A stretch of 64,000 nucleotides of DNA from Enteropsectra breve (taxonomy: Eukaryota > Microsporidia): assembly GCA_024243835.1 (NCBI GenBank), contig JALPMN010000645.1, positions 57,837-121,836 of the forward strand. Direction: 5' to 3'. The translations under genes and the position numbers were made by a program. Below, piece after piece: positions 41,307 through 61,195 of the stretch (positions within the stretch are counted from its first letter, which is position 1; every line of letters begins with the position of its first letter). The notes beneath the pieces were generated by a model that saw nothing but the letters and a program-made list of their open reading frames with translations, made no database searches and was not told the origin of the DNA.

Positions 41307-44102
41307 CTATATCGCTGCATTCCTTTTATACTTTCTGGCAGTGTCGAATACTAATATTGCAACAGCAGCCCCAAGCGAAGGGACCAATGCTGACAGATCT
41401 GGCCTTCTTACCATTATGAACTCTTCAAAAAAGGGTGTGTACAAAACGGCTGTGCTAACAATTATTCCTCCGACCATGCTGAAGAAAAGTCTTTTGCTCC
41501 GCAGCAGATTTAAATAAAAATATTCGGTGCTTTTCCTGCAAACGAGCAAGTTTGAGAGTTGGCATAGCAACAAACCAATAAAGAATGTGCACCTCGCCTC
41601 ATACAAGATAGAAAGCTGTTCGTTCTCGTCAAGAATGTTTCTATTTTCAAGCACGAGTTCTTTCGCGTGGTGCTTGAAATAGTCGTTTGTAACAAAAAAT
41701 AGCTTATTTAAGGGGATTCCGTGCTTCAGAAAAACATAGTAAAACGAGAGTGTGCAGCCTATAGTTGTAATTAGTCCCACCTCTACAAGTGACGAGAGCA
41801 GCATTTTCTTAGAGTAGAGGCTTCCTGAAAATACCGAGTTGGACTGCCGCGCTAAATAGTGAAAAAAGTCTTGGTTTGGATCCTGCTGTGCCTCAGAAAT
41901 AGGCGTATTCTGTCTGTTTCTATGTGTCCTGCTATTTTGCACAATGCTGCTCTCAGGTTCTTCAAAGGCAAAAAATGTTGCCGGTAGAATTTCGATCAGG
42001 TAGTTCATAAAAATAAGCAAAATTGGAGATGACGGGATTGGAGATCCAAGAAAAATGAAGAAAAAGACTCCTGCAAGCTGTGGGGTGATGTCCATCATAA
42101 TAAAGCGGATAGCTTTTTTCAGATTAATCAGGAACAGTCTTCCCTCAAAAATGGCATTTAAAATGCTGATCGGACGCATTTCCCTGATAACAAATGATGA
42201 GAGTTCCTGGCATCTTTGTGGTGCGCTCTCAAAGCATATTCCAATATTTGCCTCAGCCAGCGCCTTGCAGTCCGTCATATCAGCGCCCACAAATGCCACA
42301 ATCTCGCCCTGGCTCTTAAGATCATGAACAATCCTGTAGCGGTCCTCCGCACTGCACTTTGCAATAATGAGATTGCTGTGTGCCCTTACTGCCCCGGGAG
42401 GCTCTGCAAAAAGAAGTGCATCCTCACTATCTCTGTTATTGTCTGTTATATTTTTTCCAGTGAAAAATTTTTGTCCCACTCTTCGCAGCCGCTGGGCCTC
42501 TGAGTCCCCGGTAAGGCAAACAGAGATGCCTGCCTTGTTTAAAACAGTTGATAGAACCGTTGCACCGTTTTTAAGCTCAGCCGTGAAATAAAGAATCGAA
42601 ACAAATGTGAACTTGCTAAGCGTAACATCCTTTTCATCGTGAAGTGCTGCTCGTTTTTCCAATAGAACTATGGTTTTATATCCGCTGGCTGCATGTTCGC
42701 ATGCGTTTTCGTAAAGCTGCTCAAGAGTTTTGCGTTTTGTGCGCAGAATTCTCTCTCCGTACAGAATGCTCTTGCACTGCATGATTATCTCATGGCTCAT
42801 TGCTGCAAAATACACGGTTTTGTATTTGGGTGTTTGAGTCGCCACACCATATATTTTCTGTTCGTCATACTTGTTATAAGGCACTGTTTCTCGGTTGCTG
42901 TATCCATAATACTCCTGGCATTCCTTTCCAAAGAGCATCAGAGAGTACAGTCGGTTATTCTCAAGGCCGATACTGCGGTACAAACTCATTCTGTACGCAA
43001 TCTCGCCCACTTTTCTCAACAGCAACTGCTCATATGTATTTTCGTCCGATACTATGAAATCAATATTAAAGAGCCTGAATCCATCAGAGATGCAGCTGCA
43101 CTCCAGCCGTCCATCGTGTACCAGCGCATTCTTAGTAATGCAAAGAGCAGTGATCTCTCCCAGTGCCTCTATGCTTTCGAGCTCATTTGCCACAAGACCC
43201 TGCTCCTTAAGCTTAAAGGCTGTCTGGAATAGCAGCAGCTTTACCGCTGCGGGAATTCCCTCAGGCAGCACTGCGATAAAAATGGACACAGTAATGTCAG
43301 CCAGAGTGAAGAAATGAACGCCAAAGATAACACCAAAAAAAAGACAGAGTGCGGCTAGCGCTGTTGCAAAAACAAATGACCCCCAGAAAAATACCGTCAG
43401 GCTCCTGCCCAGCCGGGTTTCCGCGTTTCTCATTTGCCTGGCTGCCTCCGATGCCTTCGAGATTGTGGTATCAGCCCCAAGAGCAAATATTTTCGCCACG
43501 GCCTTTCCAGACGCAATAAAATGGCTTTCAAGAATTTGAGTGCTGCCGTTTTCCTGAAGTTTCTCAGCTGAAACCAGGTGATGGTGCCCTGTAAACTGCG
43601 ATTCGTCAATCTGCAAGTTCTCGGAAGAGACAACAATGCAGTCTGCGGGACACGTGTCTCCCTGTGATAAAAGCAAAAGATCACCAACAGCTAGATCTTC
43701 TTTGTTTACGAGTTGCATCTCCTCCCCGCTTTGGACCTGGTACTGGCTTTGGATGAAATTCTCGTCAAGCAGCCTCTCAAGCTTATTGTGGCTGTAGATT
43801 TCAACCAGAATATTGAAGCCCATTATCACAAAGGTGAAAATGGAGACCATCAGGTGCTCGCGTTCCTCCTTGGAAAACCAGTAAATACCCGCAAGAACAA
43901 ACGCTGATGCGATAAGAACGATATTAATAGGCTCGGCGATGATGTGCAGTGTCTGTCTCAGGTTCCACTTGAGCCGGTTTGCACAGCGCCGAACGATGTT
44001 TGAGATCCGAGTGGAATACCCCTTTTTAGCCACAGAAGGCTCTATGTGCTCAGACTGGAATTTACCTCTTATCATATTTGACCTTGATTTAGTGCCGTCC
44101 AT
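41307..44102 (-). CDS. P-type ATPase-like protein lacking catalytic residues
   Basis: 931 residues with the layout of type IIC cation pumps (Na,K-ATPase-like). There are two spans, an A domain, two spans with PEGIPAAVKLLL at about 280, P and N domains, and a C-terminal membrane part with several spans. The catalytic residues are gone. The phosphorylation motif DKTGT is CITKNAL with Thr323 in place of Asp. The A-domain TGE is TGH (171-173). The first Asp of the GDGxND hinge is Ala607 (VGADMTD). The KGAPE lysine is replaced (YFAAMSHE). It therefore cannot form the aspartyl phosphate. The frame is complete and unbroken, so it looks like a maintained pseudoenzyme. The start is ATG 44102; an upstream TTG is not used. 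Confidence 0.9.
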   Translation of the reverse strand: MDGTKSRSNMIRGKFQSEHIEPSVAKKGYSTRISNIVRRCANRLKWNLRQTLHIIAEPINIVLIASAFVLAGIYWFSKEEREHLMVSIFTFVIMGFNILVEIYSHNKLERLLDENFIQSQYQVQSGEEMQLVNKEDLAVGDLLLLSQGDTCPADCIVVSSENLQIDESQFTGHHHLVSAEKLQENGSTQILESHFIASGKAVAKIFALGADTTISKASEAARQMRNAETRLGRSLTVFFWGSFVFATALAALCLFFGVIFGVHFFTLADITVSIFIAVLPEGIPAAVKLLLFQTAFKLKEQGLVANELESIEALGEITALCITKNALVHDGRLECSCISDGFRLFNIDFIVSDENTYEQLLLRKVGEIAYRMSLYRSIGLENNRLYSLMLFGKECQEYYGYSNRETVPYNKYDEQKIYGVATQTPKYKTVYFAAMSHEIIMQCKSILYGERILRTKRKTLEQLYENACEHAASGYKTIVLLEKRAALHDEKDVTLSKFTFVSILYFTAELKNGATVLSTVLNKAGISVCLTGDSEAQRLRRVGQKFFTGKNITDNNRDSEDALLFAEPPGAVRAHSNLIIAKCSAEDRYRIVHDLKSQGEIVAFVGADMTDCKALAEANIGICFESAPQRCQELSSFVIREMRPISILNAIFEGRLFLINLKKAIRFIMMDITPQLAGVFFFIFLGSPIPSSPILLIFMNYLIEILPATFFAFEEPESSIVQNSRTHRNRQNTPISEAQQDPNQDFFHYLARQSNSVFSGSLYSKKMLLSSLVEVGLITTIGCTLSFYYVFLKHGIPLNKLFFVTNDYFKHHAKELVLENRNILDENEQLSILYEARCTFFIGLLLCQLSNLLVCRKSTEYFYLNLLRSKRLFFSMVGGIIVSTAVLYTPFFEEFIMVRRPDLSALVPSLGAAVAILVFDTARKYKRNAAI

Positions 44103-54943: not shown

Positions 54944-57349
54944 ATGAAAATATTTCTCATATCAGGATTCATAAGCAGAGTATTTTCAAGAATTGTTCTA
55001 GCACCACTCCAACGCCCATACAAAGATCAGTATGCAGTTACACTCAAATCTGATACAATGGCCGTATCTTTTGACTTTAGAGATCTTCTTGTGTCTGGGC
55101 CAATAGAAAGAGCTTTCAGCTACGCAAAGGAGGAGGGTGTGCAGATATCGCCATGGCTTGATCTTCTGGTCGAGTTTAATGAAGTGTATGAACAAGCACT
55201 GCAGGATCTATCCTGCAGCCCGGCAAATGCCTATGACTTGCATGATAAGCTCCTAAATGACGAGCTTAAAAAAAGCGTTCTTTTTCACAAATTCATTAAT
55301 GAAAACTTTCCTGAAGAACTTGATGATTTTATCAAAGTTTTCCCTCTTGATATTGTTTACGATGTCTTTCAGCTAACATCTGGCTGGTGCGAAAGCCTGA
55401 GCATTAAGTTTAGTGAAAGCAGGGCATTTGAGATTCTGAGGGCATATGATTACCTTGAAATAAGCGGTGAAAAGAAGGCTGATCTTTTCTTTAATGAAAA
55501 CGGCGAACCAGTGCGTTTGAGGCTAAAAATCATTGATCTTTTTTGTATTAATTTCGTGTATCTTCTCGGAAAACACGAGCTATTGAAGAAATACAGATCA
55601 TTTTTCAATTCTGTTGAGGAGGATGATGATGAACCGATATTTAGTTCTGAATTATATAGCAACTCTGAAAAAATGAATAGCTCTGCAGGTGCTTTAATAA
55701 AGAACATGCATCTGTTTTCAAGAATAATGAAAGCCATTGCGGACATTTCTATAGAAACAGAAAATGAAGAGTTAATAGAGCGAGCAAAGGATGCGGAAGA
55801 CAACAAAAACACTGCAAGAATCAATGCAATAAAAAGTATAGAGCCACTTAAGGACTACATCTGCTTGCTGAAGGTAATTAAAAATGACGGCCGTGTTGGC
55901 AATCTGTTTTTGTCTTGTGGGGACTATATCTTTGTGCACAAATTGCTCTATGGAGAAAATGCCACGATGATCAGCCTAACTAACAAGAAGAAAAACTATA
56001 GTAACCCACGGGTAGATCTTATTGATGAGTTTAAGACATGCAAACTGCCTATGAGCAACAGAAGACTGGAGATTATGCTGCCTTTTTCAGAATATTACGG
56101 CGGCAATGATAGATTCGTCACCTCTAAAATTCCGAGAGATTTTGCACAGTGCATTAGTTGTTATGCTAATTTTATGCCGATATACAAGGATATTAATGAG
56201 GTGTATATTTATAGCTTGCTTGATCTTTATAAAGAATCACCCAAAACAGGAATGACGAACAAGCCTATGATACGCTATCTTGTGAATATGGTAGTAAAGG
56301 CTCTAAAAGAGTTTTCGGGGCTTAGATCACTGCTAATTGACGGCTTTTACGAATTCCCAGATGAGCTAATTCCAGAGCTGCAAGAGTCTAAATTATCGCA
56401 ATTCGGAGCTGTCAGTTTCTACAAAAATATCGACTACCATGTTATTAATCGCATTTTCAGCAAGGAATGCCCGCTTAGAAAAAGCATCTCTCAGTTTATT
56501 GGACGTTTTAGCTCATTGCAGCTTCTTTCTACATATATTCCAGCGAAACAAATAAAAACTGCAGTAATATACATTGAGGAAGAAGAAAGATACAGAGACT
56601 TCACAAAAAACGAAAGGGCATTTTTTGAACAAATTAGCAACTATTTTGCTGAGCAGAACTTCAAAAAGAATATGGTTCTTAGTAACCAATTTGAAATTGA
56701 AACCGTTTACTTCCAAAGACTTAAATTTGAAGTAGAAGAGTCTGCTTTGAGCTCTGCTAGACCTGAATTAGGTCTGGAAAATTATTTCATTCGTGGTGAG
56801 GGTTATGATTTAGCCAGTGAAATAACGTCTAAATGTAGAATTAGCCAAGTGAAGACTTTCAACTATAATGACAGCACTGGCTTTATTTCGCGCTGCATTA
56901 GCCGTGTTATACTCGGCAATAGGTATATTAAAAAGATTGAGATTATAATAAACAACTATGATAAGTTGGACATGGCAGCTGAACGTTCGAAGATCTTTAG
57001 GTTAGACCATTCTTGTCTAATTCTGAATATGAATGCTCAAAGACTCATTGATAGAGCGACTAAAAGTACTTTATGCAAGAATACAGCGCATGGCATTTTC
57101 TTAATATACGCCAGCTATGTGCATGAAAACTACAATAATGCAGTTCTTAAGATTCGGCTAAGACAGCGTAGATCTGATAAATTTGACTATGAACGATTGA
57201 TGAGTAGTTTACTTGCATATATCAAGACAGAATGTATTAGATACTATCGTTCTGATAACCACGGCTATCTAAAAAACAAGAGTGTGGAATTTGACAAGGA
57301 TATTTATGAAGTCAACAACGATCTTGCGACACAAGTCATTAGGTTATAA
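54944..57349 (+). CDS. Large lineage-specific protein, paralogue A
   Basis: 801 residues with a hydrophobic N-terminus (MKIFLISGFISRVFSRIVLA) that could be a signal peptide. It is clearly related to the gene at 58946-61195 along its whole length: FDFRDL/FDLRDL near the start, LTSGWCESL/LTNGWCHEL, KIIDLFCINFVYLL/KTIDLFCINVVYLL, NRRLEIMLPF/NRKLNIMLPF and SCLILNMNAQR/SCLILNINVHR. No known domain. The C-terminal half has regularly spaced hydrophobic residues that recall leucine-rich repeats (LRSLLIDGFYEFPDELIPEL). A 36-residue acidic/Ser segment (about 225-280) is absent from the paralogue. CCC lies two bases before ATG 54944. Large secreted families of this kind are common in microsporidia. Confidence 0.9.
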   Translation: MKIFLISGFISRVFSRIVLAPLQRPYKDQYAVTLKSDTMAVSFDFRDLLVSGPIERAFSYAKEEGVQISPWLDLLVEFNEVYEQALQDLSCSPANAYDLHDKLLNDELKKSVLFHKFINENFPEELDDFIKVFPLDIVYDVFQLTSGWCESLSIKFSESRAFEILRAYDYLEISGEKKADLFFNENGEPVRLRLKIIDLFCINFVYLLGKHELLKKYRSFFNSVEEDDDEPIFSSELYSNSEKMNSSAGALIKNMHLFSRIMKAIADISIETENEELIERAKDAEDNKNTARINAIKSIEPLKDYICLLKVIKNDGRVGNLFLSCGDYIFVHKLLYGENATMISLTNKKKNYSNPRVDLIDEFKTCKLPMSNRRLEIMLPFSEYYGGNDRFVTSKIPRDFAQCISCYANFMPIYKDINEVYIYSLLDLYKESPKTGMTNKPMIRYLVNMVVKALKEFSGLRSLLIDGFYEFPDELIPELQESKLSQFGAVSFYKNIDYHVINRIFSKECPLRKSISQFIGRFSSLQLLSTYIPAKQIKTAVIYIEEEERYRDFTKNERAFFEQISNYFAEQNFKKNMVLSNQFEIETVYFQRLKFEVEESALSSARPELGLENYFIRGEGYDLASEITSKCRISQVKTFNYNDSTGFISRCISRVILGNRYIKKIEIIINNYDKLDMAAERSKIFRLDHSCLILNMNAQRLIDRATKSTLCKNTAHGIFLIYASYVHENYNNAVLKIRLRQRRSDKFDYERLMSSLLAYIKTECIRYYRSDNHGYLKNKSVEFDKDIYEVNNDLATQVIRL

Positions 57350-58945: not shown

Positions 58946-61195
58946 TTACATGCGTATTGACTTTAGAGATGACTCGTTGACTATATTATAACCTGCATAC
59001 TCAAATCTTAGCCTATTTCCAACATTAAAGCCTTGATTTTCATATTCATTCTTGAAGCTCTCCATTAAACTGTGTATTACCTCGTCTGTTGACGACCTAC
59101 TTCGTCTCAGCCGTAGCGTTATTGTCATGTTGTTCTCAAAGACAATACGCCTAATTAAATAAGAAAAATCGCGTGCATATATTGGTTGCAGCCTGTTGTC
59201 TGTCTGATTGCTCATATATCTGTGCACATTTATATTTAATATCAGGCACGAATTGCTACTTTTGAAATATCTTAAATAATTTGACATACTTTCAAAGCAT
59301 ATGTGCTCATGATCCTTTACGATGATCTCAATTATTTTTATAGTCTTAAACGCACTTTCAGCAGCTTTGGTGAGGCCCTCAAGAAAAGCATCAGTGCCAG
59401 GATCATTGCAGGCAACTACTTTTCTGATCGTGCAGCTATCAACGATTTCAGTCCCCCAAATGTATGTTGAACTGTGTCTAAATTCTGTGATAGGTGCTAG
59501 TAGCGGCCTATTTGCATTCATATTAGTGTTATGTGTTAAGAACGACAGCTCCATACAATAAAAAGTATCGATCTCTAGTGCTTCTCCCGGAATGACAGCT
59601 TCATAGAGACATCCGTTTTTAAAATACTTTCTGATTTGCTTGACAACATTTTTTTCATCATCAAAGAAATCCACACGGGCACCTGCTATCCAGTGGGCAA
59701 GGGTAGCCTCTTTTATCTGGTTTTTTGGCAGAAATTTTGAAATAAAGATCAAAGCACGAAAATGGCCCACAAAATGCGTGATGCTTTTCTTAAGCGGAGA
59801 GTTTTCATCAAAAAGGCGGTAAATTACCAAATAGTCGAGTGCTCCATGGGTGCTCATGGCACCGAACTTCTTAAGTGCTTTCTTTTTTAACACTGGGATT
59901 AAGGCATCCGGGAATTTATGAAAGCCCCGAATAAATAGTGCGTTAAGCCCTGGCAGCTGCTTTATTACTGTTAAAACAGTGTCAATCAAGAGACCATAAA
60001 CATACTCCTCTTGGCGCTGAGAAACCGAGTCTTTTTCAGAAAAATGAATCAAATTACTAATACAAACCTCTGTTAGCTCATTGAAGATTCCCATCAGATG
60101 TGTGAAGCTGTGAGATATAAGAACACTGTTACTGTTAAACTTCAGCGGTCTCAGATACTGCTTATACATAAAATCCCTGCAAAAAGGCAGCATGATATTA
60201 AGTTTTCTGTTGATCATGCGGGGACTGAGTGTGTTAAGCTCGACAATAAGATCCAGCCTCGAAGATTCCTCGTTAAAGTCATTTTTATGTTGAAGACGGA
60301 TGCTCTTGCAGTTTTCTTCATGCAGCAGGTCATAAACGAAATAAACTGACTCAGTTCCGAGAAAAAGGCTTTTAACACGATGCTTCTCCATTTTAATATG
60401 CAGCAGACAGATATAGTGGGCTAAGGGGCCGGTCTTTTTAATCAGGGCGGCAATTTTTTTTCTATCGTGTTTATTTTCAACCCCCAGGTATTCGTTGTAT
60501 GCGCTAGCAACAGAGGTTTTATATCCAGCAGTGAGCAATGAACGGTAGTCTTCCAACAAGCCATGTGTCTCGAGGAGATAGACGACATTGATGCAGAAGA
60601 GATCGATGGTCTTTATTCTGAGATGCAGCGGCGCGCCTGAGTGTTTAAAGAAAACATCAACCTGTTTTTCATGATCAAGCTCCAAATAATTAAATGCCAT
60701 CAAAATATCAGATATTGTTTCGTCGTCTACAAAGAATCTTAGTTCGTGGCACCAGCCATTTGTTAATTTAAAAACACTGTTTAAAACGCTTGATGCAACA
60801 TGGAGACTAAAAAGCATAATATCCGCGGGCTCGTTCTCTTTCAAAAAAATATCATAGTGATTGTGCGTCATCATAATTTTTTGGATGTGCTCGCACTGCA
60901 CTCTATGGGTATCAGCAATAGAGCATTTGATCTTACTTAATGCATTCTCATAAAGATCGTACATTTCGAGCAGCACCTTGAGCCTTGGGGTAGCTTCTAT
61001 GTCTCTCAGATGAGTGCCTCGCACAGCCTGCTCTACAACTTTGGACTTAAAAAGGTCTCTCAAATCAAACGTGTCAGTCGAGTCTTTGGTATTTATGCTA
61101 ACCTGAAACTGCTTTTCAAACATTCTTTCATCATCATACACGGGCATTGAAGAATAGTGCTTCCACAGTAATGCGCAAAGTAAAAGGTTCGCCAT
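58946..61195 (-). CDS. Large lineage-specific protein, paralogue B
   Basis: 749 residues, with a short hydrophobic N-terminus (MANLLLCALLWKHYSS), possibly a signal peptide. It is homologous to the gene at 54944-57349, in convergent orientation, from FDLRDLF near residue 40 to the end. No known domain is visible. The C-terminal third ends in a basic strand pattern (ITLRLRRSRSS) also present in paralogue A (LKIRLRQRRSD). ATG 61195 has GCCC three bases upstream. The pair has diverged far enough that identity is limited to short blocks, so the duplication is old. Function unknown. Confidence 0.9.
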   Translation of the reverse strand: MANLLLCALLWKHYSSMPVYDDERMFEKQFQVSINTKDSTDTFDLRDLFKSKVVEQAVRGTHLRDIEATPRLKVLLEMYDLYENALSKIKCSIADTHRVQCEHIQKIMMTHNHYDIFLKENEPADIMLFSLHVASSVLNSVFKLTNGWCHELRFFVDDETISDILMAFNYLELDHEKQVDVFFKHSGAPLHLRIKTIDLFCINVVYLLETHGLLEDYRSLLTAGYKTSVASAYNEYLGVENKHDRKKIAALIKKTGPLAHYICLLHIKMEKHRVKSLFLGTESVYFVYDLLHEENCKSIRLQHKNDFNEESSRLDLIVELNTLSPRMINRKLNIMLPFCRDFMYKQYLRPLKFNSNSVLISHSFTHLMGIFNELTEVCISNLIHFSEKDSVSQRQEEYVYGLLIDTVLTVIKQLPGLNALFIRGFHKFPDALIPVLKKKALKKFGAMSTHGALDYLVIYRLFDENSPLKKSITHFVGHFRALIFISKFLPKNQIKEATLAHWIAGARVDFFDDEKNVVKQIRKYFKNGCLYEAVIPGEALEIDTFYCMELSFLTHNTNMNANRPLLAPITEFRHSSTYIWGTEIVDSCTIRKVVACNDPGTDAFLEGLTKAAESAFKTIKIIEIIVKDHEHICFESMSNYLRYFKSSNSCLILNINVHRYMSNQTDNRLQPIYARDFSYLIRRIVFENNMTITLRLRRSRSSTDEVIHSLMESFKNEYENQGFNVGNRLRFEYAGYNIVNESSLKSIRM

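What the first reader, a model, noticed from the sequence alone, without database searches (positions are those of the whole stretch)
41307..44102. A complete P-type ATPase with all key catalytic residues replaced
The protein keeps the full architecture of a type IIC pump and an unbroken 931-codon frame. Its phosphorylated Asp is Thr (CITKNAL instead of CSDKTGT), the dephosphorylation Glu is His (TGH instead of TGE), the first hinge Asp is Ala (VGADMTD instead of TGDGVND) and the nucleotide-site lysine of KGAPE is missing. Several independent losses in an intact gene argue for selection on a non-pump function, such as a lipid/ion sensor, a partner of an active ATPase, or a host-facing membrane scaffold. 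The family and motifs are established; the new function is inferred.
Basis: partly seen in the sequence, partly recalled or inferred. Interest (0 to 1): 0.8.

Follow-up and report, generated by a model that had tools for sequence, protein, structure and literature searches.

The report
Intact but catalytically dead ion pump
A microsporidian parasite carries an unbroken gene for a sodium/potassium-type membrane pump whose ATP-driven engine has lost its essential residues while its membrane part has been spared far more, so it probably does a job other than pumping; what job is unknown.

Summary
The minus-strand ORF 44102-41307 encodes 931 aa with P2-type ATPase architecture. DKTGT reads TKNAL, TGES reads TGHH, KGA reads AAM, DPPR loses its Asp and GDGxND reads GADMTD. 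"All key residues" overstates it: TGD, the motif Lys, PEG in TM4 and the second hinge Asp remain. Against 62 aligned homologues it keeps 39 of 72 near-invariant columns (they keep 51-72); all 145 homologues returned keep DKTGT. Losses are uneven: membrane consensus positions are kept at 61%, inside the homologues' range (53-100%, median 81%); cytosolic ones at 40%, below all 62 (61-98%). Open frame and coding-type GC3 argue against recent decay. The five other P-type ATPases found in this assembly (P1B, two P4, two P5) keep their motifs. No working type II pump was found; marker counts suggest roughly 90% completeness. Best reading: a maintained type IIC-like pseudo-pump whose surviving function lies in the membrane domain. 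Its role (scaffold or regulator, ion-binding sensor, passive path) is inferred. No homologue above 28% (whole-protein search) or 34% (C-terminal half, partial cover) was returned, so dN/dS could not be computed. ERMA/TMEM94 is the nearest precedent seen, but it keeps the Asp.

The parts
41307..44102 (-). Gene for the P2-type (IIC-like) pseudo-ATPase, 931 aa (ATG 44102, TAG 41309-41307)
43581..43592 (-). A-domain loop TGES read as TGHH (residues 171-174)
43257..43265 (-). TM4 PEG (residues 280-282), retained
43122..43136 (-). Phosphorylation site DKTGT read as TKNAL (residues 323-327); only the Lys is kept
42798..42806 (-). N-domain nucleotide motif KGA read as AAM (residues 433-435)
42576..42581 (-). 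Start of the DPPR motif read as AE (residues 508-509)
42504..42512 (-). TGD (residues 531-533), retained HAD motif
42270..42287 (-). Hinge GDGxND read as GADMTD (residues 606-611); the second Asp is kept
41955..42182 (-). TM5-TM6 region (residues 641-716); 32 of 80 residues identical to the IIC protein P0190 (counted on 641-720); pocket positions read Q675, N700, E704
41310..41876 (-). TM7-TM10 part (residues 743-931), C-terminal P2 membrane domain, PF00689

Best explanation
The gene encodes a full-length, membrane-inserted descendant of a type IIC (Na,K-ATPase-like) pump that can no longer form or break down the aspartyl-phosphate and probably cannot bind ATP in the usual way. It is kept for a function of its membrane domain that needs no ATP cycle. 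Proposed mechanism (inferred): the eroded A, P and N domains act as a fixed cap that holds the membrane bundle in one conformation, in which it serves as a scaffold or regulatory subunit for another membrane protein, or as a static ion-binding site. Shown: intact frame, motif losses, uneven retention, no other type II pump found in the assembly. Inferred: that it is expressed, folded and non-hydrolytic, that selection keeps it, and what it binds.
Confidence: 0.57

Rival explanations
1. A gene in slow decay: the pump became dispensable inside the host cell, the engine eroded first, and the frame is open by luck or by weak residual constraint.
For: No close relative found and a very long branch; microsporidian evolution goes with genome reduction (passage of PMC10406608). 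Loss of several pump motifs is what relaxed selection would permit; membrane retention is at the low end of the homologues.
Against: 931 open codons although 33 of 72 near-invariant positions have changed; coding-type GC3; the cytosolic and membrane parts did not erode alike.
Confidence: 0.22
2. An unorthodox but still ATP-driven transporter, as described for ERMA/TMEM94, which lacks TGES, has GSSANL for GDGVND and DKQGI for DKTGT, yet is reported to move Mg2+ with ATP.
For: ERMA precedent (passages of PMC13322241); TGD, K324 and D611 retained, Lys588 changed only to Arg; TM5 carries Gln at the acidic position, and the ERMA abstract names a TM5 Gln as an ion ligand.
Against: ERMA keeps the Asp and its D427N mutant shows no uptake; here the Asp is Thr and KGA and DPPR are gone too. 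By sequence the best matches are Na,K-ATPases; no comparison with ERMA itself was made.
Confidence: 0.1
3. A passive cation pathway or leak: without phosphorylation-controlled gates the membrane bundle conducts ions down their gradient.
For: Membrane segments spared relative to the engine; TM4 PEG kept and the pocket still polar (E281, Q675, N700, E704). A palytoxin-bound Na,K-ATPase described as forming a cation channel is among the fold matches (9vj0, title only), so the fold can conduct.
Against: No direct evidence of conduction; several acidic ligands are neutral.
Confidence: 0.08
4. Assembly or sequencing artefact.
For: Only one assembly; two CCT matches on different contigs have identical scores, which hints at redundancy.
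Against: Several two-base codon changes at separate motifs in one open frame; the same assembly reads five other P-type ATPases with intact motifs.
Confidence: 0.02

Closest known systems
Type IIC P-type ATPases (Na,K-ATPase / H,K-ATPase alpha; TIGR01106, PF00122 + PF00689)
   Same: A/P/N plus membrane architecture in the model, best sequence and fold matches, TM5-6 32/80 identical to the IIC protein P0190
   Different: DKTGT, TGES, KGA, DPPR and GDGxND all broken; 145 bits against a 946-bit cut-off; 17-22% identity to the 62 aligned homologues
ERMA/TMEM94 (abstract and passages of PMC13322241 seen)
   Same: P-type fold with degenerate TGES, DKTGT and GDGxND motifs in a functional protein
   Different: ERMA keeps the phosphorylatable Asp (D427) and needs it for the reported Mg2+ transport; here it is Thr
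C. elegans CATP-1 (passages of PMC11631496 seen)
   Same: A IIC alpha subunit for which pump-independent functions were proposed (Ruaud and Bessereau 2007, seen only as cited there)
   Different: CATP-1 keeps the Asp (D409) of its D-K-S/T-G-T sequence, and the later paper finds that pump activity matters for its own phenotype
Pseudoenzymes in general (abstract and passages of PMC10211241 seen)
   Same: Enzyme fold kept, catalytic residues lost; typical roles named there are allosteric regulation, signal integration, scaffolding, competitive inhibition
   Different: The abstract exemplifies kinases, phosphatases and ADP-ribosyltransferases; the terms ATPase and transporter did not occur in its main text
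P-type ATPases lacking intact DKTGT in UniProtKB (section 27 and passages of PMC3896382 seen)
   Same: P-type proteins without the defining motif
   Different: 22 of 9,634 there, described as single point mutations in the motif; here four of five positions plus other motifs are changed

Membership tests
P-type ATPase superfamily (fold) | E1-E2 ATPase domain and P2 C-terminal membrane domain above curated cut-offs | tested here: met
   PF00122 103 bits (cut-off 28.1), PF00689 73.5 bits (27.3); HAD PF00702 14.7, below its 26.4
P-type ATPase superfamily (mechanism) | Phosphorylatable Asp in DKTGT | tested here: not met
   TKNAL at residues 323-327
P-type ATPase superfamily (mechanism) | Dephosphorylation loop TGE | tested here: not met
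   TGHH
P-type ATPase superfamily (mechanism) | Hinge GDGxND | tested here: not met
   GADMTD; last Asp kept
P-type ATPase superfamily (mechanism) | TGD motif | tested here: met
   TGD 531-533
Type IIC (TIGR01106) | Score above the curated cut-off | tested here: not met
   145.2 bits against 946.1, although ranked first
Type IIC (TIGR01106) | Groups with IIC in a tree | tested here: inconclusive
   SH-aLRT 94, not starred, branch length 4.38
Type IIC | Beta subunit gene (PF00287) in the genome | tested here: inconclusive
   No match, but the control rang nowhere
ERMA/TMEM94 | DKQGI loop retaining the Asp | tested here: not met
   Thr at that position; ERMA motif
Pseudoenzyme | Conserved catalytic residues lacking by sequence | tested here: met
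   33 of 72 near-invariant columns changed, the phosphorylated Asp among them
Pseudoenzyme | Gene maintained by selection | tested here: inconclusive
   Open frame, GC3 and uneven retention point that way; no dN/dS, no expression data
Pseudoenzyme | No catalysis in vitro | not testable with these tools
   needs purified protein

The most novel reading that the evidence does not exclude
A P-type ATPase has been converted into an ATP-independent membrane device: selection has kept the ion-pump membrane bundle and discarded the engine, giving a fixed-state scaffold, ion sensor or passive cation path in a cell in which no working type II pump was found - a true P-type pseudo-pump, which the searches did not find described.
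Probability: 0.35. Interest if true: 0.85.

Novelty: new variant of a known kind. Interest (0 to 1): 0.6.

Why it matters
P-type ATPases are defined by the phosphorylated Asp; a 2014 survey found the intact motif in 99.77% of members (PMC3896382, section 27). A retained family member with the engine dismantled and the membrane domain spared would be a natural test of what the pump's membrane bundle can do without ATP, and would bear on how a microsporidian handles ions when no working type II pump is found.

Tried and rejected
Close relatives: two protein searches returned 68 and 77 homologues besides the protein itself; the best identities were 28% (whole protein) and 34% (residues 470-931, over about a third). 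Both scored only the roughly 8,000 candidates that share most words. Hits shared at least 3 five-letter words in all; with 100 evenly spaced words the hits also share at least 3, but the hits as few as 0, so my guess at the words used fits the first search only. Calibration on DNA polymerase delta (44-48% identity, median 22 shared words of about 496) suggests that an ortholog at about 45% or more should have been found; one at 30-40% may have been missed. Scans of viral contigs (no relative) and genome contigs (one 25% cyanobacterial match) did not help. So dN/dS was not possible.

Active type II paralogue: sought with PF00122 (6 genes), PF00689 (window gene only), PF13246 (4 matches, all in the other ATPases), a IIC protein (matches in the window gene, C82 and C127 only) and the DKTGT DNA pattern. 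The pattern gave 6 matches, 1 with the reversed control: five are the other ATPases; the sixth lies in a locus whose 419-aa ORF lacks the motif and looks, by eye, like an amino-acid transporter. Completeness: 8 CCT matches, two with identical scores and so perhaps 7 distinct, and 13 proteasome loci, against the 8 and 14 usual in eukaryotes (recalled). Only best candidates are scored, and the held contig C108 ends with the window (121,836 bases) whereas the protein database lists a 128,346-base contig for this protein, so some sequence may be missing. Absence is not proven.

The beta-subunit search was uninformative because no control genome rang. Single-sequence folding failed (pLDDT 35.3), so the good model shows compatibility, not proof.

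Literature (open-licence papers only): microsporidia with P-type ATPase, 11 papers listed. [quoted passage not shown] the passages of PMC10406608 have nothing on this. Pseudoenzyme with P-type ATPase: 0 papers. The passages seen of the review PMC10654040 do not mention dead pumps. Searches showed no comparable protein in the rows listed, which for 20, 23, 24, 48 and 65 are a capped part (30 of 77, 25 of 455, 20 of 329, 20 of 1,339, 15 of 620).

Rejected: sequencing error (two-base changes at several motifs); general degeneration of this genome's ATPases (the five others keep their motifs).

Rows dropped: alignment A1 uses 62 of the 145 homologues (long fusion forms, near-copies and weak hits left out by eye); the tree uses 25 of the 145 plus 4 of the 5 own paralogues (one was cut short in its locus); two of the five rows labelled IIC there (P0014, P0037) were labelled by likeness to P0004 only.

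Full report
Check of the observation. The minus-strand frame 44102-41307 is open for 931 codons from an ATG. Pfam recognises the actuator domain (PF00122, 103 bits) and the P2 C-terminal membrane domain (PF00689, 73.5 bits), while the HAD hydrolase model falls below its cut-off at 14.7 bits. Against 62 homologues, 39 of 72 near-invariant columns are kept and 33 lost; the 62 homologues keep 51 to 72. Lost are, among others, D323T, T325N, G326A, T327L, E173H, S174H, K433A, G434A, D508A, P509E, D607A, G608D, N610T and K588R. Kept are, among others, T171-G172, P280-E281, G315, K324, T531-G532-D533, G606 and D611. So the engine is disabled by several independent changes, but "all" key residues is an overstatement.

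Where it lies. Window genes with Pfam matches are eukaryotic: DNA primase large subunit, eRF1, CCT, capping enzyme, an SNF2 protein with the DBINO domain, proteasome subunits, DNA polymerase delta. Among named proteins in the 120 of 2,179 hits listed, DNA polymerase delta is nearest to Pancytospora epiphaga (61%), P. philotis (59%) and Nucleospora cyclopteri (58%), so the organism is a microsporidian near that group. That Pancytospora and Enteropsectra belong to the Enterocytozoonida clade is from passages of PMC10393165. The species was not identified.

What family. By sequence the best solved structures are Na,K-ATPase alpha chains (140 bits; SERCA about 100). NCBIfam ranks IIC first (145 bits) ahead of PMR1-type (135); both lie far below their cut-offs. 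For comparison, three IIC relatives scored 693-1022 on the IIC model, and five other type II proteins scored higher on IIA2 than on IIC. A tree puts the protein with five IIC rows, SH-aLRT 94, on a branch of 4.38: favourable, not decisive. Residues 641-720 (TM5-TM6) are 32/80 identical to the IIC protein P0190.

What the genome holds. Six P-type ATPase genes were found: the window gene and, by best NCBIfam model, one P1B, two P4 and two P5. The other five carry a TGES-type loop, DKTGT, TGD and GDGxND, and also a KG[AS] match, which in the P1B protein may be chance. Only the window gene carries PF00689. No working type II pump was therefore found in 3.96 Mb. Marker counts (8 CCT matches, perhaps 7 distinct; 13 proteasome loci) suggest roughly nine tenths completeness, so one may be missing.

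Pseudogene or gene. Of 8,379 possible single-base changes, 347 make a stop; at 0.1 neutral substitutions per site about 12 stops are expected, at 0.2 about 23 (first order). Third-position GC is 0.49, in the range 0.45-0.57 of eight other conserved genes of the window, against 0.32 in the flanking intergenic DNA. The codon-usage score is highest in the true frame (0.154), but an antisense frame reaches 0.100, so that measure adds little. The most telling result is where the losses fall. At consensus positions (at least 70% among the homologues) the membrane segments keep 25 of 41 (0.61). That is inside the range of the homologues (0.53-1.00) though at its low end (median 0.81; 8 of 62 lower), and level with four of the five IIC rows (0.56-0.64). 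The cytosolic domains keep 50 of 126 (0.40), below every one of the 62 (0.61-0.98, median 0.92). The membrane-to-cytosol ratio is 1.54; the homologues reach at most 1.11 (Fisher p 0.02 for the window protein alone). The homologues are not independent of one another and the segment borders were set from the model, so this is an indication and not a formal test. It is what one expects if the membrane part is still selected and the engine is not.

Mechanism. The most likely account is a pseudo-pump: a folded P2-type membrane bundle under a fixed cytosolic cap, used as scaffold, regulator or static ion-binding site. A passive path or an ERMA-like unorthodox ATP cycle cannot be excluded. ERMA shows that TGES, DKTGT and GDGVND can degenerate in a functional protein, but its Asp is reported essential (passages of PMC13322241).

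Novelty. A 2014 survey found 22 of 9,634 P-type ATPases without intact DKTGT, described as single point mutations, some suspected errors (PMC3896382). A search for pseudoenzyme with P-type ATPase returned no open-licence paper. I rate it a new variant of a known kind. The main gap is the absence of relatives, transcripts and protein.

Noticed in passing
window:44921-48025 (-): DNA polymerase delta catalytic subunit, about 60% identical to Pancytospora and to unnamed proteins from public assemblies; places the organism near that microsporidian group.
   Followed up: yes
G000:C49:25940-27403 and G000:C71:9612-11075: Two CCT matches with identical scores and frame lengths, suggesting a duplicated or redundantly assembled stretch.
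   Followed up: no
window:20290-24864 (+), 54944-57349 (+), 58946-61195 (-): Large ORFs (1524, 801 and 749 aa) without a Pfam match above cut-off.
   Followed up: partly
window:37427-38686 (+): M48-type metallopeptidase-like protein, 419 aa.
   Followed up: no
window:39957-40667 (+): ORF with a PUA domain beside the pseudo-pump; its true start is uncertain, the listed one is GTG.
   Followed up: no
G000:C94:22827-23138 (L003): A P1B-type metal ATPase with intact DKTGT, TGES, TGD and GDGxND and, by eye, a Cys-x-x-Cys stretch near its N-terminus.
   Followed up: partly
G000:C108 end (window end): The held contig ends at 121,836 with the window, while the protein database lists a 128,346-base contig for the same protein; the held copy may be shortened.
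   Followed up: no
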